32,522 nucleotides of DNA from Solirubrobacterales bacterium (lineage in GTDB: Bacteria > Actinomycetota > Thermoleophilia > Solirubrobacterales > Solirubrobacteraceae), in assembly GCA_019239445.1 (NCBI GenBank), contig JAFAZV010000068.1:1-32522 (forward strand), read 5' to 3'. The notes under the pieces were generated by a model. It was given only the letters and a program-made list of their open reading frames with translations, was not told the origin of the DNA and searched no databases. The first letter of the stretch is position 1; the number at the start of each line of letters is the position of its first letter. Both the position numbers and the translations under genes were made by a program. This document shows positions 650 to 15,050 of this stretch, one piece after another.

Positions 650-1630
650 ATGAACGTGACCAGCCTGGATGAGCAAGTGACGAAGTACCTGACCGACGCG
701 CACTCGATCGAGCGCCAAGCGCTCGTCCAGATGCGTGGCGCGCCCGATATCGCCGGCGATCCGGTGATCGCCTCGGCGTTCGTGCAGCACTTGGCCGAGA
801 CCGAGGCCCACGAGAGCCTGGTGCGCCAGCGCCTCGACGCTCGCGGCGCCAGCCCCGCGGTGCTCAAGGAAATCGCCGGCGCAGTGACCGGCGCCGGATT
901 CGCGATGTTCGCGGCCGTGCAGCCGGATACGCCGGGCAAGCTCGTGACTCACGCCTACTCCTACGAGCACATGGAGCTGGCCGCATACGACCTTCTGAGC
1001 CGCATCGCGGAGCGGGCCGGTGACTCCGAGACGGTTCGCGTCGCCCGCCAGATCCTGACGCAGGAGCAGGCGATGGCCGACCGGCTCGCGAGCCTGTTCG
1101 ATCGCGCGGTCGACGCATCGCTGCGCGAGCAGAAGCCCGACGATCTCGGCGAGCAGCTGAACAAGTACCTCACCGACGCTCATGCGATCGAGGCCCAGGC
1201 GCTGCAGTTGCTGGGTCGCGCGCCCAAGATCGTCGGCGAGAGCCGACTCGCCGCGGCTTTCGAGGAGCACCGTGCCGGGACGGAAACCCACCAGCGCTTG
1301 GTCGAGGAGCGGCTTCAGGCGCGCAGCGCCGGCGCATCGACCCTCAAGGACGCCGCGCTTCGCCTGGGCGCGCTCAACTGGGGCGGCTTCTTCCAGGCGC
1401 AGCCGGACACTCCCGCCAAGCTCGCTGGCTTCGCGTACGCGTTCGAGCACCTGGAGATCGCGGCTTACGAGCTGCTAGCGCGAGTCGCCCGGCGCGCAGG
1501 CGACACCGATACCGAGGCCGTCGCACAGCGGATCCTGCCCGAGGAGCGAGCGGCGGCGGAGAAGCTCCACAGCCTGTTCGAGGTGGCGACCGAGGCCGGA
1601 CTCGAGGCGCAGGGAGTGGCGGCGCGATGA
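650..1630 (+). CDS. Tandem-duplicated DUF892 (YciE-like) ferritin-like protein
   Basis: DUF892/YciE proteins are four-helix ferritin-like bundles thought to bind a di-metal centre and linked to stress responses; the biochemical role is not established. The usual protein has one domain of about 160 residues. This 326-residue product has two copies: residues about 6-155 and 167-315. Corresponding blocks are LDEQVTKYLTDAHSIERQA and LGEQLNKYLTDAHAIEAQA, then ET-xxH, a QPDTP-AKL segment, YEHMELAAYDLL versus FEHLEIAAYELL, and a QEQ or PEE pair. Metal-ligand type Glu and His residues occur in both halves, so neither looks dead. ATG 650 follows the ribosome site AGGAG. The stop overlaps the ATG of the alcohol dehydrogenase (ATGA), so the two are likely co-translated. 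Confidence 0.85.
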   Translation: MNVTSLDEQVTKYLTDAHSIERQALVQMRGAPDIAGDPVIASAFVQHLAETEAHESLVRQRLDARGASPAVLKEIAGAVTGAGFAMFAAVQPDTPGKLVTHAYSYEHMELAAYDLLSRIAERAGDSETVRVARQILTQEQAMADRLASLFDRAVDASLREQKPDDLGEQLNKYLTDAHAIEAQALQLLGRAPKIVGESRLAAAFEEHRAGTETHQRLVEERLQARSAGASTLKDAALRLGALNWGGFFQAQPDTPAKLAGFAYAFEHLEIAAYELLARVARRAGDTDTEAVAQRILPEERAAAEKLHSLFEVATEAGLEAQGVAAR

Positions 1631-3973: not shown

Positions 3974-4207
3974 ATGTCCACCTCCGCGGAAACCGGCGGT
4001 ACCACCGGCACCAAGGACAAGGACTACAACCTCATCTGGTTTACCGAGCAGTGCCTGAGCAACGCTTTGCGGCTGGAGACCTACATCCAGGACGCCGAGC
4101 GTGACGGCGACTCGGAACTGGCTGACTTCTTCCGGCGCGCTCAGAACGAAAGTCGCAAGGGCGGCGAGCTGGGCAAGGAGCAGCTCCGCAAGCGGTTCGC
4201 CTCCTGA
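3974..4207 (+). CDS. Small conserved helical protein (77 residues)
   Basis: I recognise the type but not a named family. The core DYNLIWFTEQCLSNALRLE followed by YIQDAERDGDSELADFFRRA looks like a two-helix hairpin seen in short proteins of unknown function. The heptad-like pattern and the Glu and Asp positions recall one half of a ferritin-like bundle, but there is no full ligand set. It has one Cys, a low-complexity Ser/Thr/Gly N-terminus and a basic C-terminus. The strong ribosome site AGGAGAGGAG sits about 8 nt before ATG 3974. A strong hairpin 17 nt after the stop probably ends its transcript. Its 3' end overlaps the tail of the methyltransferase gene on the other strand. Confidence 0.75.
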   Translation: MSTSAETGGTTGTKDKDYNLIWFTEQCLSNALRLETYIQDAERDGDSELADFFRRAQNESRKGGELGKEQLRKRFAS

Positions 4208-4929
4208 ACCGCATCACGGTGAGGGCTGGGCGGCTTCGCCGGCCGCTCAGCCTTGATCACCAGCATCTCCTCCGCCCGCTCGGCCGGGTGCGCCAGCAGT
4301 CCCTGTTGGTGCAGCCAGGGCGCGCGCGCGCGCAAGATGGGACCGAGCTCGCCTTGATGCCGAAGCGCGACTTCGGCATGTAGGCCACGCTCACGCAGCA
4401 TCGACAGGGTGGCCGTCTCGCCGCATAGCGCCGAGTGGACGAGCAGCAGCCTGCCGCCCGGCCTGAGGTACGCGTCCGCCTGGGAGCAGATTCGGTCGAG
4501 AACGTCGCGGCCATCGTGCCCTGCCTCCCACGCCCGCGCCAGCCCGCGTCGCGGAAGCTCGGCTTGGGGACTGGGGACATACGGCGGGTTCGAGACGATC
4601 AGGTCGAAGCGCTGGCCGGCCACGGGCGCGAACAGATCCCCGTGCAGAGCCCGCACGCGCACGCCGTTCAGTCTCGCGTTCAGCCGCACCGCGAGCAGCG
4701 CGCGCCGCGAAACGTCCACCGCAACGACCTCGCCGCAGCCGGCCTGCGCCGCGGCGATCGCCAGGACGCCGCTGCCCGTGCCGAGGTCGAGCGCGCTGGC
4801 GCCGGCGGGAGGCGGCTCCTCGCGCAGGCAGCGCACGAGCATCCAGGCATCGCTGGGTGGCTGAAAGACTCCCGGCAATGGCAGCAGCAGCACCGGACCC
4901 GATTGCTTTCCCCGCCTCGGTGGCGCCAA
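4141..4929 (-). CDS. HemK/PrmC-like SAM-dependent methyltransferase
   Basis: A class I methyltransferase with the SAM motif DLGTGSG at residues 48-54, the acidic ribose-binding D72 (VVAVDVS) and NPPY at 114-117, the motif of N-methyltransferases acting on Gln, Asn or nucleobase amino groups. The opening LPGVFQPPSDAWML matches the short HemK-related branch without the PrmC N-terminal helical domain, so it is not obviously the release-factor enzyme. The conserved domain ends near EMLVIKAERP. The remaining 35 residues are low-complexity, contain a terminator hairpin and overlap the 77-residue gene by 67 bp, so they may be run-on coding. The outer ATG at 4929 overlaps the divergent GCS2 gene. GTG 4893 is a possible inner start. 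Confidence 0.82.
   Translation of the reverse strand: MAPPRRGKQSGPVLLLPLPGVFQPPSDAWMLVRCLREEPPPAGASALDLGTGSGVLAIAAAQAGCGEVVAVDVSRRALLAVRLNARLNGVRVRALHGDLFAPVAGQRFDLIVSNPPYVPSPQAELPRRGLARAWEAGHDGRDVLDRICSQADAYLRPGGRLLLVHSALCGETATLSMLRERGLHAEVALRHQGELGPILRARAPWLHQQGLLAHPAERAEEMLVIKAERPAKPPSPHRDAVQEANRLRSCSLPSSPPLRLSF
4224..4252 (+). terminator. Intrinsic-type hairpin after the 77-residue gene
   Basis: Arms GGCTGGGCGGC (4224-4234) and GCCGCTCAGCC (4242-4252) form an 11-bp stem with one G-T wobble and a 7-nt loop. Only TT follows, so it is a GC-rich actinobacterial-type terminator rather than a classical one. It lies inside the last codons of the oppositely oriented methyltransferase frame. Confidence 0.6.
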
Positions 4930-6044
4930 ACGCCGAGCAGCTGCGCGCCGCGTTCGCGAAGAGCCCAGCCAACAGCGTCGGCCTCGAGGACGAGGTGATG
5001 CTGCTCGACCCCGACAGCCTCGAGCTCCTGCCCCGCGCCCACCAGGTGCTGGCGTCGCTTGGCGACTCGGAGACGTTCAAGCTCGAACTCCCCGCCTCCC
5101 AGCTCGAGATCGTCACCACGCCGAACGCGTCCGTGCCCGAGCTCGGCGCCACGCTGCTGGCCACGCGCCGAGAGCTCCTTTCACACCTCGGCGGGAGCGC
5201 CCTGGCGGCGTCGGCCGGGGTGCATCCGTTCAGCACCGGCGTCGGCGAGCTCAACCAGCTCGAGCGCTACTCGCAGACCATCGTCGAACACGGCCGGCTT
5301 GCCCAGCGCCAGCTCGTCTGCGCCTTGCAGGTGCATATCAGCGTCGGCGACGCCGACCGCGCCCTGGCTGTGTACAACGCCGCCCGGTCCTATCTACCCC
5401 TGATCGCCGCGCTGGCGGCGAACGCGCCGTTCTACGAAGGTCGCGACACGGGCCTGGCGTCGGTGCGCCCGAAGCTCTCCGAGCTGCTGCCGCGCCAGGG
5501 CGTGCCGCCGGCGATCGACTCGTGGGAGTCGCACGCCAAGGCGCTTGCCTGGGGCGCGGCGTCGGGAGCGTTCCCCCCTCGCACCTGGTGGTGGGAGCTG
5601 CGCCCGCACGTCGGCTATGGGACGCTCGAGTTCCGCGTCCCCGACGGCCAGAGCAGCGTGGCCGACGCCACTGCGATCGCTGCCTTCGTGCAAGCGCTCG
5701 CGGCATGGCTGGGCGAGCGCTACGACGCGGGCGCGCGTGAGCCTGTCGCCGAGACCTGGCGAATCGCCGAGAATCGCTGGCTGGCGTGCCGCTACGGCGT
5801 CGAAGGCACGCTCCCCGACCTTCAGACCGGCGAGCGCCTGCCCACCCGCGAGCGCCTCCTCGAGCTGATCGAGACGCTACAGCCAACCGCGACTCGCCTG
5901 GGCTCGGCCGCGCTACTCGATCATGCACGGCAGCTGACGGCCGTGAACGGTGCACTCGCGCAGCGGCAAGTCGCTGCGCAGCTCGGTGTCCGCGGTGTCG
6001 CAGCCTGGCTGGCGGGGCGCTTTCTCGATGCGCCGTCCGGGTAG
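4878..6044 (+). CDS. GCS2-family glutamate-cysteine ligase / carboxylate-amine ligase
   Basis: Members of the GCS2 (YbdK-like) family use ATP to join a carboxylate, classically the gamma-carboxyl of glutamate, to an amine such as cysteine. The 388-residue product opens its domain with VGLEDEVMLLD (Glu 37 and 39, the usual metal-ATP site). It continues with a QVHISVGDAD segment, NAARSYLPLIAALAANAPF and WWWELRPHVGYGTLEFRVPD. These are the family hallmarks in order. The true substrates are open, as YbdK-like proteins are often not glutathione or mycothiol enzymes. ATG 4878 has a weak upstream GAAAG; GTG 4857 is an alternative. It ends 9 nt before the diiron oxidase gene, so the two are probably one transcript. 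Confidence 0.85.
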   Translation: MAAAAPDPIAFPASVAPNAEQLRAAFAKSPANSVGLEDEVMLLDPDSLELLPRAHQVLASLGDSETFKLELPASQLEIVTTPNASVPELGATLLATRRELLSHLGGSALAASAGVHPFSTGVGELNQLERYSQTIVEHGRLAQRQLVCALQVHISVGDADRALAVYNAARSYLPLIAALAANAPFYEGRDTGLASVRPKLSELLPRQGVPPAIDSWESHAKALAWGAASGAFPPRTWWWELRPHVGYGTLEFRVPDGQSSVADATAIAAFVQALAAWLGERYDAGAREPVAETWRIAENRWLACRYGVEGTLPDLQTGERLPTRERLLELIETLQPTATRLGSAALLDHARQLTAVNGALAQRQVAAQLGVRGVAAWLAGRFLDAPSG

Positions 6045-6053
6045 AGCAAGGCC

Positions 6054-7091
6054 ATGAACCGGGCGCCGGCGCCTCGAGGGCAGATCAGCGAGCGGTTGCT
6101 AGAGGCGCTGGGCGCGAGCCCGCACGAGCTCGAGCTGGAGGCGATCCCGGCCACGGGCGACGCCCTTGCCGATGAGGATCTGCAGCTCTCGCTCTATCTC
6201 TGCTACGAGCTGCACTACCGGGGCTTGCCAGACGTCGATGAGGAGTGGGAGTGGGAGCCGTCGCTACTCGCGCTACGCGCAGAGCTCGAACGGCGCTTCG
6301 AGCGTGCGCTGCTCGATGCCGTTCCGATGCCGACTCGCCCTACCGGCGCCGATGAGATCGACGTCATCCTGCGGGGAATCTCCGAACGAGAGTCGCCGCC
6401 GCTCTCTACCTATGTCCGCTCGAGCGCGAGCCTCGAGCAGATCATGGAGTTCCTGGTTCACCGCTCGGCCTACCAGCTGAAGGAGGCCGATCCCCATTCA
6501 TGGGCGATCCCGCGCCTCTCCGGGGAGCCCAAGGCGGCGCTCATCGAGATCCAGGCCGACGAGTACGGGGGCGGGCGCAGCGACTGGATCCACGCCGAGC
6601 TGTTCGCCCGGGCCATGCAGGCGATCGGGCTCGACCGCAGCTACGGCGCGTATCTCAATCTGATTCCGGCCGTGACGCTGGTAACCGTCAACCTCATGTC
6701 CCTGTTCGGCCTGCATCGTCGTTGGCGTGGAGCGATCGTTGGGCACCTGGCGTTGTTCGAGATGACCTCTTCGATTCCCAACCGGCGCTACGGGGACGGC
6801 TTACGCCGCCTGGGTCTGGGTGGTGATGCGACGTTGTTCTTCGACGAGCACGTCGAGGCGGACGCGGTTCACGAGAACATCGCCGCCGTCGACCTGGCCG
6901 GGGGTCTACTCCGGCAGGAGCCCCAGCTCGCGCCGTCGCTGGTTTGGGGCGCCGAGACCCTCGCGTGTCTGGACGCCCGGTGGGCCGGCTGGGTCCTGGA
7001 CTGCTGGCGCGCCGGGCGCAGCTCCCTGCTGCGGCCGCTCGAAGACGGTGAGGCCGACGTCACCGGATCGGCCGCCTTGTCAGCTTCCTGA
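6054..7091 (+). CDS. Iron-containing redox enzyme, heme-oxygenase-like diiron oxidase (HDO) family
   Basis: HDO enzymes use a diiron site in a heme-oxygenase-like helical fold for N-oxygenation, C-C cleavage or desaturation of small molecules. The 345-residue product shows QLKEADPHSWAIPRL, QADEYGGG, SDWIHAELF, a PAVTLVTVNLMSLFGLHRR stretch, LALFEMTSSIPNRRY and FFDEHVEADAVHE. Candidate iron ligands are E144, E170, H180, E236, H266, D270 and H273. From memory, these have the same spacing as the seven ligands of the SznF N-oxygenase diiron domain, offset by 45. A ribosome-site-like AAGG lies 5 nt before ATG 6054. The substrate is unknown. The gene follows the GCS2 ligase closely and overlaps the CDGSH gene tail to tail by 12 bp. 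Confidence 0.85.
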   Translation: MNRAPAPRGQISERLLEALGASPHELELEAIPATGDALADEDLQLSLYLCYELHYRGLPDVDEEWEWEPSLLALRAELERRFERALLDAVPMPTRPTGADEIDVILRGISERESPPLSTYVRSSASLEQIMEFLVHRSAYQLKEADPHSWAIPRLSGEPKAALIEIQADEYGGGRSDWIHAELFARAMQAIGLDRSYGAYLNLIPAVTLVTVNLMSLFGLHRRWRGAIVGHLALFEMTSSIPNRRYGDGLRRLGLGGDATLFFDEHVEADAVHENIAAVDLAGGLLRQEPQLAPSLVWGAETLACLDARWAGWVLDCWRAGRSSLLRPLEDGEADVTGSAALSAS

Positions 7092-7322
7092 CGCCTCCGG
7101 CGGATCGAGCGCGAGCGAACCCCCTGGCGCGCGGAACCCGATCAACTTGTGCGTTCCGTCACAAGTAGGCCAGAGCCGCGACTTGCCGCATCTGCAGAGG
7201 GCAATCGGCCGCCGCTGGCCGCCGATTGGACGGCCCTCCCGGTCGAGGACCTGCGCCGGACCGCGGACCAATAGCGGCCCGTCTCTGTAGGCAGTCAGGA
7301 GAACAGCGTTCTTTGCCGGCAC
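7080..7322 (-). CDS. CDGSH-type iron-sulfur protein
   Basis: A small 80-residue protein with one CDGSH domain. The cluster ligands are C43, C45, C54 and H58 in ALCRCGKSRLWPTCDGTH, with the spacing C-x-C-x8-C-x3-H typical of the 2Fe-2S site. Such proteins transfer electrons or clusters. The segment before the domain (DGPLLVRGPAQVLDREG) matches the single-domain bacterial members. The start is GTG 7320-7322; no good ribosome site is seen. Its last 12 bp overlap the 3' end of the diiron oxidase gene on the other strand. That closeness suggests functional pairing, for example supply of electrons to the diiron centre, but this is inference. Confidence 0.88.
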   Translation of the reverse strand: MPAKNAVLLTAYRDGPLLVRGPAQVLDREGRPIGGQRRPIALCRCGKSRLWPTCDGTHKLIGFRAPGGSLALDPPEASGS

Positions 7323-7459: not shown

Positions 7460-8260
7460 GTGGCACATGGCCTGCTAGAGCGCACAGAGAGGGTCGGATT
7501 CTTGCTCGAGCGCACTGAATCGAGCGAGTTGTTCGTACGCTGGCAGCAGCACGGGGACACCCGCGCGCGGGCGCAGCTGGTCGAACGGTTCCTTCCGTTG
7601 GCGCGCAAGTTGGCGCGCCGGTACAGCGGCGCGCACGAGCCGTTCGATGACCTTCTGCAGGTGGCCAGCCTGGGCTTGGTCAAGGCCATCGACCGATTCG
7701 ACACCAGCCGTGGTACTGCCTTCTCATCATTCGCCGTTCCCACGATCCTTGGCGAGCTCAAGCGGTATTTCCGCGATCTCGGGTGGTCGGTGCACGTTCC
7801 GCGTGGGGCGCAGGAGCTGGCCTTGAAGGTCGAGGAGGCGCGCCAGCGGATGACCTCCAAGACCGGGCGTCCGCCGAGTGTTCCCGAGCTGGCTCAGTAC
7901 CTCGAGTTGAGCGTGGAAGATGTGCTCGAAGCTCTCGAGACCGCCGGCGCGCATCACACCGCCTCGCTCGACGCGCCACGCGACGATGGTGAGGAAGACG
8001 CGGGCACGCTCGCAGACGCGTTCGGCCAAACCGACGAGCGCTTTGATCTCGTCGACGACAAGGTCACGATCGCGGCGGCGGCGCGCCACCTTGGGGCGCG
8101 CGAGCGGCGGGTGCTCGTGTTGCGCTTCGTCGAAGACCTGACCCAGAGCCAGATCGCCGCCATGATCGGCGTCTCCCAGATGCAGGTCTCGCGGATCCTT
8201 CGGCGTGCGCTCGAGCAGCTCCGCGAACTAACGCTGGTCGAAGAGCAGCCGATCGCTTAG
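7460..8260 (+). CDS. RNA polymerase sigma factor of the SigB/SigF/SigG family (copy 1)
   Basis: A group 3 stress-type sigma factor of 266 residues without region 1.1. Region 2 runs from about 36 to 105 (LVERFLPLARKLARRY, FDDLLQVASLGLVKAIDRFD, FSSFAVPTILGELKRYFRD). Region 3 follows (VHVPRGAQEL to about 160). Region 4 with its helix-turn-helix is at about 205-256 (LTQSQIAAMIGVSQMQVSRILRR). The N-terminus carries a short repeat LLERTE at 5-10 and 15-20. GTG 7460 is chosen because AAGGAGG lies 7 nt upstream. Its own promoter is SigB-like. It is followed by the anti-sigma gene, so it is probably held inactive by that protein until stress. It is clearly paralogous to the factor at 11511-12308. Confidence 0.93.
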   Translation: MAHGLLERTERVGFLLERTESSELFVRWQQHGDTRARAQLVERFLPLARKLARRYSGAHEPFDDLLQVASLGLVKAIDRFDTSRGTAFSSFAVPTILGELKRYFRDLGWSVHVPRGAQELALKVEEARQRMTSKTGRPPSVPELAQYLELSVEDVLEALETAGAHHTASLDAPRDDGEEDAGTLADAFGQTDERFDLVDDKVTIAAAARHLGARERRVLVLRFVEDLTQSQIAAMIGVSQMQVSRILRRALEQLRELTLVEEQPIA

Positions 8261-8351: not shown

Positions 8352-8585
8352 TCGGCGGGAGAAGTCGTCCATCGAGCCAGTGAAGGCGCCGTATACAGCG
8401 AATGCGCACGCTAACTTCAAGCGGGCGCCGGTGTGGCACCGCGGCGGCGCGTTTGCGGGGCCTCGGTCACCGGCGGCCGGTCAACTGCGCGGCATCGGTC
8501 CTGTAGATGCTGCGAGCGGATGCCGACATGGATGGTGTGGCGCGCCTACTCGTATCGCATCATCACGCCGGCCGAGGCGGGCGCG

Positions 8586-9470
8586 ATGACGGCTGACGCG
8601 CCGAGCGCTGCGCTGGCCGCCGAGCCTGCGACGCTCAGTCTTACGCTCGAAAGCCGTCCCGAAACGCTCACCCTCGTGCGCGGGATGCTGAGCGGAGTCG
8701 CCGAGCTGCTGTCGATGGATCCAGAGCTGCTGGATGACCTGAAGACGGCCGTCAGCGAGGCCTGCAACAACGTCGTGCTGCACGCATACCCCAACGGTTC
8801 CGGTCCGCTCGCGGTGTCGCTCAACGCCGCCCAAGCCGGCATCGAGGTGCTCGTGCGCGATGCGGGAGTCGGCATCCCCGAACACGCATCCGCCGATGAT
8901 CGCGTACAGGGAGTCGGTTTACCGGTCATCCGGGCTCTCACCGACAAGGCCGAGTTCCGCCCTTGCCAGGGCGGCGGCACCGAGGTGTGGATGCACTTCG
9001 CGGGACAGCGCGACGGCAGGCCCCTATTCCAGCGCCCCGACATGGCCGCGCCTGATGATGGGTTCTCGAAGCACCTCGCCGGCGACGCCGTTGTCTCCGT
9101 GTCGCCCATCGGGCTCCTCGGAGGCGTCCTCGGAAGGCTGTCACGCGCGCTCGCGGCCAGCGCTCGCTTCTCGCTCGACCGCTTCTCCGACGTCTATCTG
9201 GTGACCGACGCGATCGCCGCGCATACATCAGTTGCGGCGAGCGGCGAGAGAATCGGCTTTGCAATCAGGGCGGGCGGCCGGCGCCTGGAGCTGACCGTTG
9301 GGCCGCTCCGCGCCGGCAGCGGTGAGAAGCTTCGTACGGAGGGTCACGGCGGTGACGCCCCGTCCCCGCTCGAGCTGCTCAGCGACCAGCTCGAGTGTCA
9401 CGACGTCGGCGGTTACGAGCTCCTCCGGGTGGTCATGGTCGATCATCGCCGTTGGCCGGCCAGGAGCTGA
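8586..9470 (+). CDS. Anti-sigma factor ATPase (RsbW/SpoIIAB-like GHKL) with a C-terminal extension
   Basis: An RsbW-type serine kinase would bind the sigma factor and phosphorylate its STAS antagonist. The N-terminal GHKL domain (about 15-140) has the N-box SEACNNVVLHAY (E58, N61, N62), DAGVGIP at 92-98 and GVGLPVI at 109-115. Unlike a 140-160-residue RsbW, this product continues to residue 294. Residues about 190-287 (ARFSLDRFSDVYLVTDAIAAH, then IGFAIRAGGRRLELTVGPLR) follow the strand-helix order of a GHKL domain but lack the N-box Asn and the DxGxG motif, so it looks like a degenerate second copy. ATG 8586 has GAGG upstream; ATG 8520 and an outer start at 8433 are alternatives. It converges on the STAS gene. 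Confidence 0.82.
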   Translation: MTADAPSAALAAEPATLSLTLESRPETLTLVRGMLSGVAELLSMDPELLDDLKTAVSEACNNVVLHAYPNGSGPLAVSLNAAQAGIEVLVRDAGVGIPEHASADDRVQGVGLPVIRALTDKAEFRPCQGGGTEVWMHFAGQRDGRPLFQRPDMAAPDDGFSKHLAGDAVVSVSPIGLLGGVLGRLSRALAASARFSLDRFSDVYLVTDAIAAHTSVAASGERIGFAIRAGGRRLELTVGPLRAGSGEKLRTEGHGGDAPSPLELLSDQLECHDVGGYELLRVVMVDHRRWPARS

Positions 9471-9485: not shown

Positions 9486-9830
9486 TCAATCGGCCTCGAA
9501 CAGCTCTTCGGGCGTGTCGGCGAAGCGCAGGCGATCCTCGACGCCGGTCAAGCTCAGCAGCCGCTGCACCTGCTGAGGCCCGCGCACCACGCCAAACTGC
9601 TTGCCTAGCCCCTCCGCGCGCTGGTGGGCCTTGACCAGCGTGCTCAGCCCGGTCGAATCCATGAATTCGAGCTCGCGTAGGTCAACCACGACGCCTTCGG
9701 TGCCGGACGCCACCGTGTGCTCGAGCTCCTCCTCCAGCGCCGCACTCGACGCCAGGTCGAGCTCGCCGCTGACCGTGATCACGCTCGTTCGCCCGTTGTT
9801 GCGAACCTCTACGCGGAAATGACCCTGCAC
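9486..9830 (-). CDS. STAS-domain anti-sigma factor antagonist (RsbV/SpoIIAA-like)
   Basis: A 114-residue single STAS domain. The order is TVSGELDLASSAALEEEL, then GVVVDLRELEFMDSTGLSTLV, with S59 of DSTGL as the expected phosphorylation site. The dephosphorylated protein would bind the anti-sigma ATPase and free the sigma factor. GTG 9828-9830 is chosen because AAGGGG lies 6 nt upstream and the STAS fold begins just after it. The same frame stays open for another 188 codons upstream, but that part lies antisense to the dehydrogenase gene and has no protein-like features. Unlike the usual rsbV-rsbW-sigB order, it faces the anti-sigma gene tail to tail. Confidence 0.9.
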   Translation of the reverse strand: MQGHFRVEVRNNGRTSVITVSGELDLASSAALEEELEHTVASGTEGVVVDLRELEFMDSTGLSTLVKAHQRAEGLGKQFGVVRGPQQVQRLLSLTGVEDRLRFADTPEELFEAD

Positions 9831-11510: not shown

Positions 11511-12308
11511 TCAGATCGCAGGCGCGCTCGCGTCGCTGCGATCACGGTCGTCCGTCAGCTCGCGCAGGTGCGCAAGCGCGTTGCGGAGCAGCCGCGAGAC
11601 CTGCATCTGCGAGACGCCGATCCGCCCGGCAATCTCGGTTTGAGTGAGATCGGCGCCGAAGCGCAGGAGCAGGATCTCGCGCTCGCGGCGGGGTAGGTGA
11701 CGCGCTGCGGCGGTGATCGTCGTCTGAGCGTCGATGATGTCGAGGCGGCGGTCGGCCCCTCCAAGAGTCTCTATCCGGCTCGTAGGAGCACCCTCGGCAT
11801 CGTCGGACGCCGGAGCATCAAGCGAAACCGCGTCGTAGGCCTCGGCCGCCTGTAGTCCTTCCAAGACGTCTTCGTCGCTCACCTCGAGATACTGCGCGAG
11901 ATCGCCGATCGTGGGCGGGCGTCCAGTCTGGGCGCTGATCTTCCTTTGCGCGTCGGTGACCCGGTGGGCCAGCTCTTGCGCACCGCGGTTGACGTGCACG
12001 GCCCAGCCCGAGTCGCGAAAGTAGCGCTTCAGCTCGCCCACGATGGTCGGGACCGCGAAGGAAGTAAAAGCGAACCCCCGCTCAGGGTCGAACCGCTCCA
12101 CCGCCTTCACCAGTCCGAGACTCGCCACCTGCACGAGGTCGTCGAACGATTCGCTCGAGTTCGCGTATCGCCCCGCCAGCTTGTGCGCGAGCGGCAGATA
12201 GCGCTCGACCAGCTCGTCCCGCGCGGCTCGGTCCGCCGATCGCCGCCAGCGCGCGAACAGCTCTGGAGACCCGGTCGCTGCTGCGGGTGCGCCCGGGACT
12301 TCTGTCAC
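11511..12308 (-). CDS. RNA polymerase sigma factor of the SigB/SigF/SigG family (copy 2)
   Basis: A 265-residue paralogue of sigma factor 1 with the same layout: LVERYLPLAHKLAGRY, FDDLVQVASLGLVKAVERFD, FTSFAVPTIVGELKRYFRDSGWAVHVNRGAQEL in regions 2-3, and LTQTEIAGRIGVSQMQVSRLLRNAL in region 4.2. The recognition helix is nearly identical to copy 1, so promoter choice may overlap. The linker (DAPASDDAEGAPTSRIETLGG) and the N-terminus differ most, which could separate binding to anti-sigma partners. The start is GTG 12306-12308 with AAGGCG just upstream. No SigB-type promoter is visible before it; a TACAAAAT stretch near 12345-12352 on the minus strand could be a -10 of another class. Upstream lies topoisomerase IB on the same strand. 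Confidence 0.92.
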   Translation of the reverse strand: MTEVPGAPAAATGSPELFARWRRSADRAARDELVERYLPLAHKLAGRYANSSESFDDLVQVASLGLVKAVERFDPERGFAFTSFAVPTIVGELKRYFRDSGWAVHVNRGAQELAHRVTDAQRKISAQTGRPPTIGDLAQYLEVSDEDVLEGLQAAEAYDAVSLDAPASDDAEGAPTSRIETLGGADRRLDIIDAQTTITAAARHLPRREREILLLRFGADLTQTEIAGRIGVSQMQVSRLLRNALAHLRELTDDRDRSDASAPAI

Positions 12309-13649: not shown

Positions 13650-15050
13650 ATGCAGAGCGCCCCATTCACCTCGCCGCTGGCCCAAGGCCTTGCCGAGGAC
13701 TTACTCGAGCGCTTTCAGCGCTACGTGCGGATCGATTCCCAGGCGCGCCGCGATCGCGAGCGCTCACCGAGCACGCCCGGGCAGCTCGAGCTCGGACGGC
13801 TGCTCGTGCGCGAGCTCAAGGAGGCCGGACTCGACGCCGTCGAGCAGGATGAGAATGGCTATGTCACGGCGACGCTGCCGGAGGTAGGGGGCGCGGCAGG
13901 AGGCGGGGAGGACGGGCACGACGCCGGCCCCGGCGCGATCGGGCTGATCGCGCATCTCGACACCACGCCCGACACCCCGGCTGCCGGGGCGGAGGCGCTC
14001 GTGCACCGCGCGTACGCGGGCGGCGTGATCGACCTGCCTCGCGGCGGAACTCAACTCGATCCGGCCTCGATGCCCGAGCTCGGCGCCAAGGTCGGTCACG
14101 ACATCGTCACCTCCAGCGGCGACACGTTGCTGGGCGCCGACGACAAGGCGGGCGTGGCGGCGATCATGTCCGCCGTTGCCCACCTCGCGCGCCATCCGGA
14201 TCTTCCGCGCCCGCGGCTGCGAATCGCCTTCACGCCCGACGAGGAGATCGGCGAAGGCGCAACGCTGTTCGACATTCCGCGCTTTGGCGCTCTATGCGCC
14301 TACACGATCGACGGGTCCAAGCTGGGGGAGCTCCAGGACGAGACGTTCAGCGCCGCCGAGGCCATCATCACGATCGACGGCGTTGACGTGCACCCGGGCC
14401 AGGCCACCGGCAAGCTCGTGAACGCGCTGCGCCTGGCCTCGCGCGTGGTGGCGGCGTTGCCGGACGACACCTTGACCCCCGAGACGACCGCCGACCGCGA
14501 GGGATTCATCCATCCGTACCTCATCGAAGGAACCGCCGCGCGCGCCACCATCCGCGCGATCGTGCGCGACTTCGACGATGAGTTGCTCGAGGCGCACCAG
14601 CGCCTCCTCGAGCGCACCGCTCGCGAGGTCGTCGAGCGCGAGCCGCGCGCTCGCCTCGACGTCGCGCTGCGCGAGCAGTACCGGAACATGCGTCGCTACA
14701 TCGAGCGCGTCCCGGAAGCCATCGCCGCTGCCGAAGCGGCGATCCGCGCGGAGGGAATCGAGCCCGTCCGCGAGCCGATCCGGGGCGGAACCGACGGCTC
14801 GCGCCTCAGCGAGATGGGCCTTCCGACTCCGAACATCTTCACCGGCGGCCAAGAGTTCCATTCACTGCGCGAGTGGGCATCGCTGCAGGACATGGCGGCG
14901 TCCGCGGCGACGATTATCCGCCTGGCACAGGAGTGGGCGACGCGGCAGTCGCCGCTCGGCGGGCGGGAGGACTCGGGCAGCAGGTTGAAGGACTCGGGCA
15001 GCGGGTCGAAGGACTCGGTCGGCCAGCCGGAGGACTCGGGCAGCGGATAG
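13650..15050 (+). CDS. pepT: Peptidase T (M20 tripeptidase)
   Basis: A cytoplasmic zinc aminopeptidase that removes N-terminal residues from tripeptides, 466 residues. Metal-site motifs are AHLDTTPD (H102, D104), GADDKAG (D164), FTPDEEIGEG (E198 as catalytic base, E199 as ligand), IDGS (D221) and the C-terminal FTGGQEFHS. PIRGGTDGSRLSEMGLPTPN marks the substrate site typical of PepT. A Gly-rich insertion near residues 78-95 and a 28-residue tail of EDSGS-type repeats (from about 439) are extra to the family. The tail is made by a 21-bp DNA repeat. The start ATG 13650 has no clear ribosome site. It is divergent from topoisomerase IB and is followed 32 nt later by the aminotransferase. Confidence 0.92.
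   Translation: MQSAPFTSPLAQGLAEDLLERFQRYVRIDSQARRDRERSPSTPGQLELGRLLVRELKEAGLDAVEQDENGYVTATLPEVGGAAGGGEDGHDAGPGAIGLIAHLDTTPDTPAAGAEALVHRAYAGGVIDLPRGGTQLDPASMPELGAKVGHDIVTSSGDTLLGADDKAGVAAIMSAVAHLARHPDLPRPRLRIAFTPDEEIGEGATLFDIPRFGALCAYTIDGSKLGELQDETFSAAEAIITIDGVDVHPGQATGKLVNALRLASRVVAALPDDTLTPETTADREGFIHPYLIEGTAARATIRAIVRDFDDELLEAHQRLLERTAREVVEREPRARLDVALREQYRNMRRYIERVPEAIAAAEAAIRAEGIEPVREPIRGGTDGSRLSEMGLPTPNIFTGGQEFHSLREWASLQDMAASAATIIRLAQEWATRQSPLGGREDSGSRLKDSGSGSKDSVGQPEDSGSG
14968..15050 (+). repeat. 21-bp tandem repeat, four units, encoding the PepT tail
   Basis: Units start at 14968, 14989, 15010 and 15031. Each begins AGGACTCGG, and three continue GCAGC. The period of 21 keeps the frame, giving (E/K)DSGS-type peptides. 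The last unit is 20 bp and ends in the stop TAG. Confidence 0.85.

What the first reader, a model, noticed from the sequence alone, without database searches (positions are those of the whole stretch)
6483..6872. Complete seven-ligand diiron site with SznF-like spacing in the HDO protein
Candidate ligands E144, E170, H180, E236, H266, D270 and H273 can be read directly. As I remember the SznF N-oxygenase ligands (E189, E215, H225, E281, H311, D315, H318), every position is offset by the same 45. The extra Glu before the first canonical one is the feature linked with N-oxygenating HDOs. The enzyme may therefore be an N-oxygenase rather than a UndA-like decarboxylase.
Basis: partly seen in the sequence, partly recalled or inferred. 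Interest (0 to 1): 0.65.

Follow-up and report, generated by a model that had tools for sequence, protein, structure and literature searches.

The report
Seven-ligand diiron oxygenase beside CDGSH protein
The gene encodes an oxygen-using diiron enzyme whose seven metal-binding residues match, one for one, those of the nitrogen-oxidising enzyme SznF; its reaction is unknown, but across Actinobacteria its gene repeatedly lies beside one for a small iron-sulphur (CDGSH) protein that may be its partner.

Summary
Window 6054-7091 (+) encodes a 345-aa PF14518 protein. HMMER alignment to SznF pairs E144/E170/H180/E236/H266/D270/H273 with E189/E215/H225/E281/H311/D315/H318, offset 45 throughout. Each is present in 83-84 of 84 aligned family sequences. 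The predicted fold (pLDDT 93.7) is nearest to the N-oxygenases HrmI (Z 33.7), SznF (28.5) and RohS (27.6), and farther from CADD, BesC and UndA (20-17). RohS shares the seventh carboxylate; HrmI has Phe there, yet is an N-oxygenase. So the extra Glu marks the 3H/4C cofactor type and does not prove N-oxygenation. "Not UndA-like" is supported; "N-oxygenase" is plausible (about 50%) and untested. The new element is context: a CDGSH gene lies within 1.5 kb in 66 of 83 homologous loci, in four arrangements (at least 13 changes on the tree). In 149 actinobacterial genomes it lies near 20 of 28 members of this subfamily and 0 of 36 other PF14518 hits. I propose a peroxo-diiron oxygenase with a dedicated NEET-type electron donor, in a stress-gene setting.

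The parts
6054..7091 (+). HDO gene, 345 aa, PF14518 (Haem_oxygenas_2), 3H/4C type
   Evidence: ORF; Pfam 1e-55; AF2 model pLDDT 93.7; fold neighbours HrmI/SznF/RohS
6483..6485 (+). codon of E144, the extra (seventh) carboxylate, = SznF E189, RohS E119; Phe in HrmI
   Evidence: present in 83 of 84 family sequences
6561..6563 (+). codon of E170, core ligand, = SznF E215
6591..6593 (+). codon of H180, core ligand, = SznF H225
6759..6761 (+). codon of E236, core ligand, = SznF E281
6849..6851 (+). codon of H266, core ligand, = SznF H311
6861..6863 (+). codon of D270, core ligand, = SznF D315
6870..6872 (+). codon of H273, core ligand, = SznF H318
7080..7322 (-). CDGSH iron-sulphur protein, 80 aa, convergent with the HDO (3' ends overlap by 12 bp); cluster ligands C43, C45, C54, H58 encoded at 7149-7196
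   Evidence: PF09360 E 2.6e-15; linkage 66 of 83 loci; 20 of 28 versus 0 of 36
4141..4929 (-). HemK2/MTQ2-type methyltransferase, frequent neighbour of this HDO clade (role unknown)
   Evidence: TIGR00537 over cut-off; found in 40 loci
4857..6044 (+). GCS2/YbdK-type carboxylate-amine ligase, ends 9 bp before the HDO start, probably the same transcript; neighbour mainly in Thermoleophilia
   Evidence: PF04107 2.4e-37; TIGR02050 over cut-off

Best explanation
An uncharacterised, conserved actinobacterial clade of 3H/4C HDOs. SHOWN: fold class, full ligand set, nearest relation to the N-oxygenases HrmI/SznF/RohS, and clade-specific linkage to a CDGSH gene. INFERRED: the six core ligands bind two irons and E144 completes Fe1, so the diferrous enzyme can make a mu-peroxodiferric species without substrate as seventh ligand; the peroxide (or its P' form) oxidises a nitrogen of a small substrate (amine, guanidine, amino acid or gamma-glutamyl-type conjugate); the diferric centre is then re-reduced by electrons delivered through the neighbouring CDGSH [2Fe-2S] protein. 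The setting (stress-type sigma factors, a DUF892 ferritin-like protein, topoisomerase IB) suggests a stress or stationary-phase role rather than a classical antibiotic cluster. My separate estimates: 3H/4C diiron site 0.93; N-oxygenation 0.5; CDGSH as electron donor 0.4. The confidence given is for the chemistry class, a peroxo-diiron enzyme of N-oxygenase type.
For: Seven ligands aligned and conserved. Nearest folds are three N-oxygenases, Z 34-27, over nearly the whole protein, and the profile search ranks the same three first. CDGSH gene within 1.5 kb in 66 of 83 loci, with at least 13 changes of arrangement on the tree, and near 20 of 28 members versus 0 of 36 other PF14518 hits in 149 genomes, p = 1.6e-10. 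Precedents: RohS is assayed with NADH plus phenazine methosulfate as electron source (PMC10724926); MboA has a dedicated Fe2S2/flavin partner MboB (PMC13185094). Opposite net charges of the HDO (median -18) and CDGSH (+3) proteins, weak support only.
Against: Identity to SznF, RohS and HrmI is only about 20% and the branches between them are very long. HDOs with the same ligands can differ in reaction (PMC13108848). A supported clade of 14 rows keeps the family fold and, where checked, all seven ligands, but has no CDGSH neighbour. No N-oxygenation pathway genes or recognisable substrate are nearby. Geometry of E144 was not measured.
Confidence: 0.5

Rival explanations
1. A protective HDO, comparable with DtpC of Acinetobacter: it consumes O2 or peroxide, or otherwise limits oxidative damage in stressed or dried cells, with the CDGSH protein as redox partner, rather than making an N-oxidised metabolite.
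For: Stress-type neighbours in the window: two SigB/F-type sigma factors, an HATPase of anti-sigma type, STAS, DUF892, topoisomerase IB; LigD primase-polymerase beside CDGSH-less relatives. DtpC is an HDO in an operon with katE, and its metal-ligand mutants lose protection (PMC13232832).
Against: DtpC is described with six ligands, and kinship to this clade was not tested. Neighbours vary between lineages; only the CDGSH gene and, less often, the methyltransferase recur widely.
Confidence: 0.25
2. A 3H/4C HDO that oxidises carbon (C-C cleavage, desaturation or rearrangement), the seventh ligand serving only to pre-organise Fe1.
For: The ligand set does not fix the reaction; HDOs with identical primary ligands diverge in function (PMC13108848). 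FlcD, which excises carbon, is also a near structural neighbour at Z 25.7.
Against: Known carbon-oxidising diiron HDOs (UndA, BesC, PolF) are markedly farther in fold (Z 17-16) and in sequence.
Confidence: 0.2
3. The CDGSH linkage reflects a shared need for iron or cluster handling under stress (cluster repair, iron donation to the HDO), not electron donation to it.
For: From general knowledge, NEET proteins can transfer clusters as well as electrons. Intervening unrelated genes occur between the two in several loci, so strict co-translation is not needed.
Against: The linkage is specific to this HDO subfamily (0 of 36 other PF14518 hits) and survives many rearrangements; other stress genes of the window are linked far less often.
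Confidence: 0.3

Closest known systems
SznF central HDO domain (streptozotocin N-oxygenase)
   Same: All seven ligands at a constant offset of 45; similar fold, Z 28.5 over 306 residues
   Different: No cupin domain in the window protein (345 aa, a single PF14518 domain); different genomic context; about 20% identity
HrmI (lysine N-oxygenase, nitro-forming)
   Same: Closest fold, Z 33.7 over 309 residues including the N-terminal part; same six core ligands
   Different: HrmI has Phe where this protein has E144; 3H/3C
RohS (2-aminoimidazole N-oxygenase)
   Same: Same seven ligands in alignment (Glu119 for E144); Z 27.6
   Different: RohS is in azomycin clusters; about 17% identity in the structural alignment; alignment starts at residue 35 of the window protein
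MboA/MboB (mangotoxin HDO with dedicated redox partner)
   Same: Idea of an HDO with a dedicated iron-sulphur partner (PMC13185094)
   Different: MboA is 3H/3C and a desaturase/acetylenase; MboB is an NAD(P)H flavin/Fe2S2 reductase, not a CDGSH protein
DtpC (Acinetobacter desiccation-tolerance HDO)
   Same: An HDO in a stress setting (PMC13232832)
   Different: Operon with catalase KatE; six ligands reported; relation to this clade not tested

Membership tests
HDO superfamily (PF14518) | Heme-oxygenase-like helical bundle, PF14518 match | tested here: met
   PF14518 E 1e-55 over its cut-off; AF2 model matches HDO structures, Z 34-17
HDO superfamily (PF14518) | Six core ligands E-H-E-H-D/E-H | tested here: met
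   E170, H180, E236, H266, D270, H273 aligned to SznF, RohS, HrmI, conserved in 83-84 of 84
HDO superfamily (PF14518) | Bound dimetal cofactor activating O2 | not testable with these tools
   needs protein, iron loading and spectroscopy
3H/4C subgroup of HDOs | Additional Glu ligand before the first core Glu | tested here: met
   E144 aligns with SznF E189 and RohS E119, conserved
3H/4C subgroup of HDOs | The extra Glu coordinates Fe1 | not testable with these tools
   model coordinates not available to scripts; metal-free prediction in any case
HDO N-oxygenases (SznF, RohS, HrmI) | Closest kinship in sequence and fold to N-oxygenases | tested here: met
   the three rank first by profile and by structure; distance remains large
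HDO N-oxygenases (SznF, RohS, HrmI) | Oxidation of a substrate nitrogen | not testable with these tools
   no substrate known; bench assay needed
SznF proper | C-terminal cupin domain for N-nitrosation | tested here: not met
   345 aa with only PF14518 found
UndA fatty-acid decarboxylase | Specific sequence and structural kinship with UndA | tested here: inconclusive
   UndA is not among the profile hits and has Z 17.1 against 28-34 for N-oxygenases; activity not tested

The most novel reading that the evidence does not exclude
A widespread actinobacterial two-component oxygenase: a 3H/4C diiron HDO driven by a dedicated CDGSH (NEET-type) [2Fe-2S] electron donor and used under stress. It would be the first HDO shown to use a NEET protein, and a new physiological role for bacterial CDGSH proteins.
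Probability: 0.3. Interest if true: 0.72.

Novelty: new variant of a known kind. Interest (0 to 1): 0.5.

Why it matters
About a dozen of more than 10,000 HDOs have a known function (PMC13108848), and how most are re-reduced is open. A large conserved 3H/4C clade with a specifically linked small iron-sulphur protein gives a concrete test of two points: does the seventh carboxylate allow substrate-free peroxo formation outside SznF, and can a CDGSH protein feed electrons to a diiron oxygenase?

Tried and rejected
Rejected: UndA-like decarboxylase (far in sequence and fold). Rejected: a phage gene; no match in 50,697 phage records, although a few relatives lie on plasmids. Rejected: CDGSH linkage as a general property of HDOs (0 of 36 other hits). 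Tried without result: an alternative redox partner in CDGSH-less relatives; neighbours examined there are LigD primase-polymerase, DUF7218 and an MFS transporter. Tried: measuring ligand distances in the model; coordinates are not exposed. Tried: clustering all neighbour ORFs (timed out; the subset added nothing decisive; one search shows what look by eye like NAD-kinase-type, glycosyltransferase and methyltransferase genes between HDO and CDGSH in some loci). Full-text searches for CDGSH together with HDO terms found no paper describing the pair; absence from one open-access library is weak evidence. The primary SznF and RohS structure papers were not held, so SznF ligand numbers were checked by alignment, not against that paper.

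Full report
WHAT WAS CHECKED. The ORF at 6054-7091 (+) encodes 345 aa. Pfam assigns PF14518, Haem_oxygenas_2, E = 1e-55. The best sequence match in the PDB is SznF (8e-8), then HrmI and RohS. Walking through the HMMER alignment with the 471-residue SznF chain pairs the seven residues with E189, E215, H225, E281, H311, D315 and H318 at a constant offset of 45. The constant offset is partly luck: a one-residue deletion and a one-residue insertion between E236 and H266 cancel. The matching residues are not luck. In 84 aligned sequences (window plus 83 loci, 45-69% identity to the window protein) each of the seven is found in 83 or 84, the exceptions being gaps.

STRUCTURE. AlphaFold2 with 55 family sequences gives mean pLDDT 93.7 and pTM 0.91. 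Against solved structures the order is HrmI Z 33.7 (309 residues, 2.4 A), SznF 28.5 (306, 3.0 A), RohS 27.6, FlcD 25.7, then CADD 20.1, BesC 17.2 and UndA 17.1. With the family profile, only SznF (5e-17), RohS (1e-16), HrmI (9e-15) and, weakly, BesC (0.003) are found among HDOs. The three closest are N-oxygenases. H266, D270 and H273 sit at i, i+4, i+7 of one predicted helix.

DOES THE EXTRA GLU MEAN N-OXYGENASE? RohS has Glu at the E144 position and HrmI has Phe, yet both are N-oxygenases. The 2026 review (PMC13108848) puts 3H/4C at about a quarter of all HDOs and ties the seventh carboxylate to peroxo formation without substrate in SznF, while noting that the 3H/3C enzyme HrmI forms the peroxo species too. 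So the Glu is a marker of cofactor type. Kinship to N-oxygenases is the better argument, and it is moderate: about 20% identity and very long branches to SznF, RohS and HrmI in the tree.

CONTEXT. Next to the HDO, on the opposite strand with a 12-bp overlap of the 3' ends, lies a small CDGSH protein with all four cluster ligands (PF09360). This is common in the family. Of 83 homologous loci, 66 have a CDGSH-motif gene, every one within 1.5 kb and 36 within 150 bp of the HDO frame. The arrangement varies: downstream opposite 37, upstream opposite 14, downstream same strand 12, upstream same strand 3. On the HDO tree at least 13 changes of arrangement are needed, so the linkage has outlived repeated rearrangement. 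On a Curtobacterium plasmid the two genes overlap by 4 bp on the same strand. As a control, 149 genomes spread over the phylum were searched for both families. A CDGSH gene lies within 2.5 kb of 20 of 28 hits scoring at least 160 bits (this subfamily) and of 0 of 36 other PF14518 hits, Fisher p = 1.6e-10, chance expectation about 0.3% per HDO (the genomes are related, so the p-value is a guide only). The linkage is therefore specific to this clade, not to HDOs at large. One supported clade of 14 rows (SH-aLRT 99) has no CDGSH neighbour; five of its members that were checked separately keep all seven ligands, and in three loci examined the neighbours are LigD primase-polymerase, DUF7218 or an MFS transporter.

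OTHER NEIGHBOURS. A HemK2/MTQ2-type methyltransferase is found in 40 of the loci, and 8 of the 11 above-cut-off genes of that family in the 149 genomes lie within 2.5 kb of an HDO of this subfamily (counted by hand). In Thermoleophilia a GCS2/YbdK-type ligase precedes the HDO, in the window by 9 bp. The window also holds two SigB/F-type sigma factors, an anti-sigma-type ATPase, a STAS protein, a DUF892 ferritin-like protein and topoisomerase IB, a general-stress setting rather than an antibiotic cluster.

MECHANISM PROPOSED. Shown: fold, ligand set, nearest kin, linkage. Inferred: a diferrous site pre-organised by E144 forms a peroxodiferric species, oxidises a nitrogen of an unknown small substrate, and is re-reduced through the CDGSH cluster. 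RohS is assayed with an added reductant, PMS plus NADH (PMC10724926), and MboA shows that an HDO can have a dedicated partner (PMC13185094). The HDO is strongly acidic and the CDGSH protein basic (median net charge -18 and +3; window -22 and +6), compatible with docking but weak evidence. The main rival is a protective role like that of DtpC, an HDO in a katE operon of Acinetobacter (PMC13232832).

VERDICT.

Noticed in passing
window 7460-8260 (+), 8433-9470 (+), 9486-9800 (-), 11511-12308 (-): Two SigB/F-type sigma factors with an HATPase of anti-sigma type and a STAS protein: a partner-switching stress regulator beside the HDO locus.
   Followed up: partly
window 650-1630 (+): Protein with two DUF892 (ferritin-like) stretches, apparently an internal duplication.
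   Followed up: no
L112, L113, L114 (HDO relatives without CDGSH): These seven-ligand relatives sit beside LigD primase-polymerase, DUF7218 with a Rho_N domain, and an MFS_3 transporter.
   Followed up: partly
L086 4947-6256 (Curtobacterium plasmid pW21): HDO and CDGSH genes on one strand overlapping by 4 bp, a likely translationally coupled pair on a plasmid.
   Followed up: no
window 4141-4929 (-) and 4857-6044 (+): The HemK2-type methyltransferase (TTG start as listed) and the GCS2-type ligase (GTG start) diverge and overlap at their 5' ends as called; one or both starts are probably wrong.
   Followed up: no
window about 14960-15050 (+): The M20 peptidase ORF ends in a short repetitive tail (KDSGSG/EDSGSG-like units), perhaps a small tandem repeat.
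   Followed up: no
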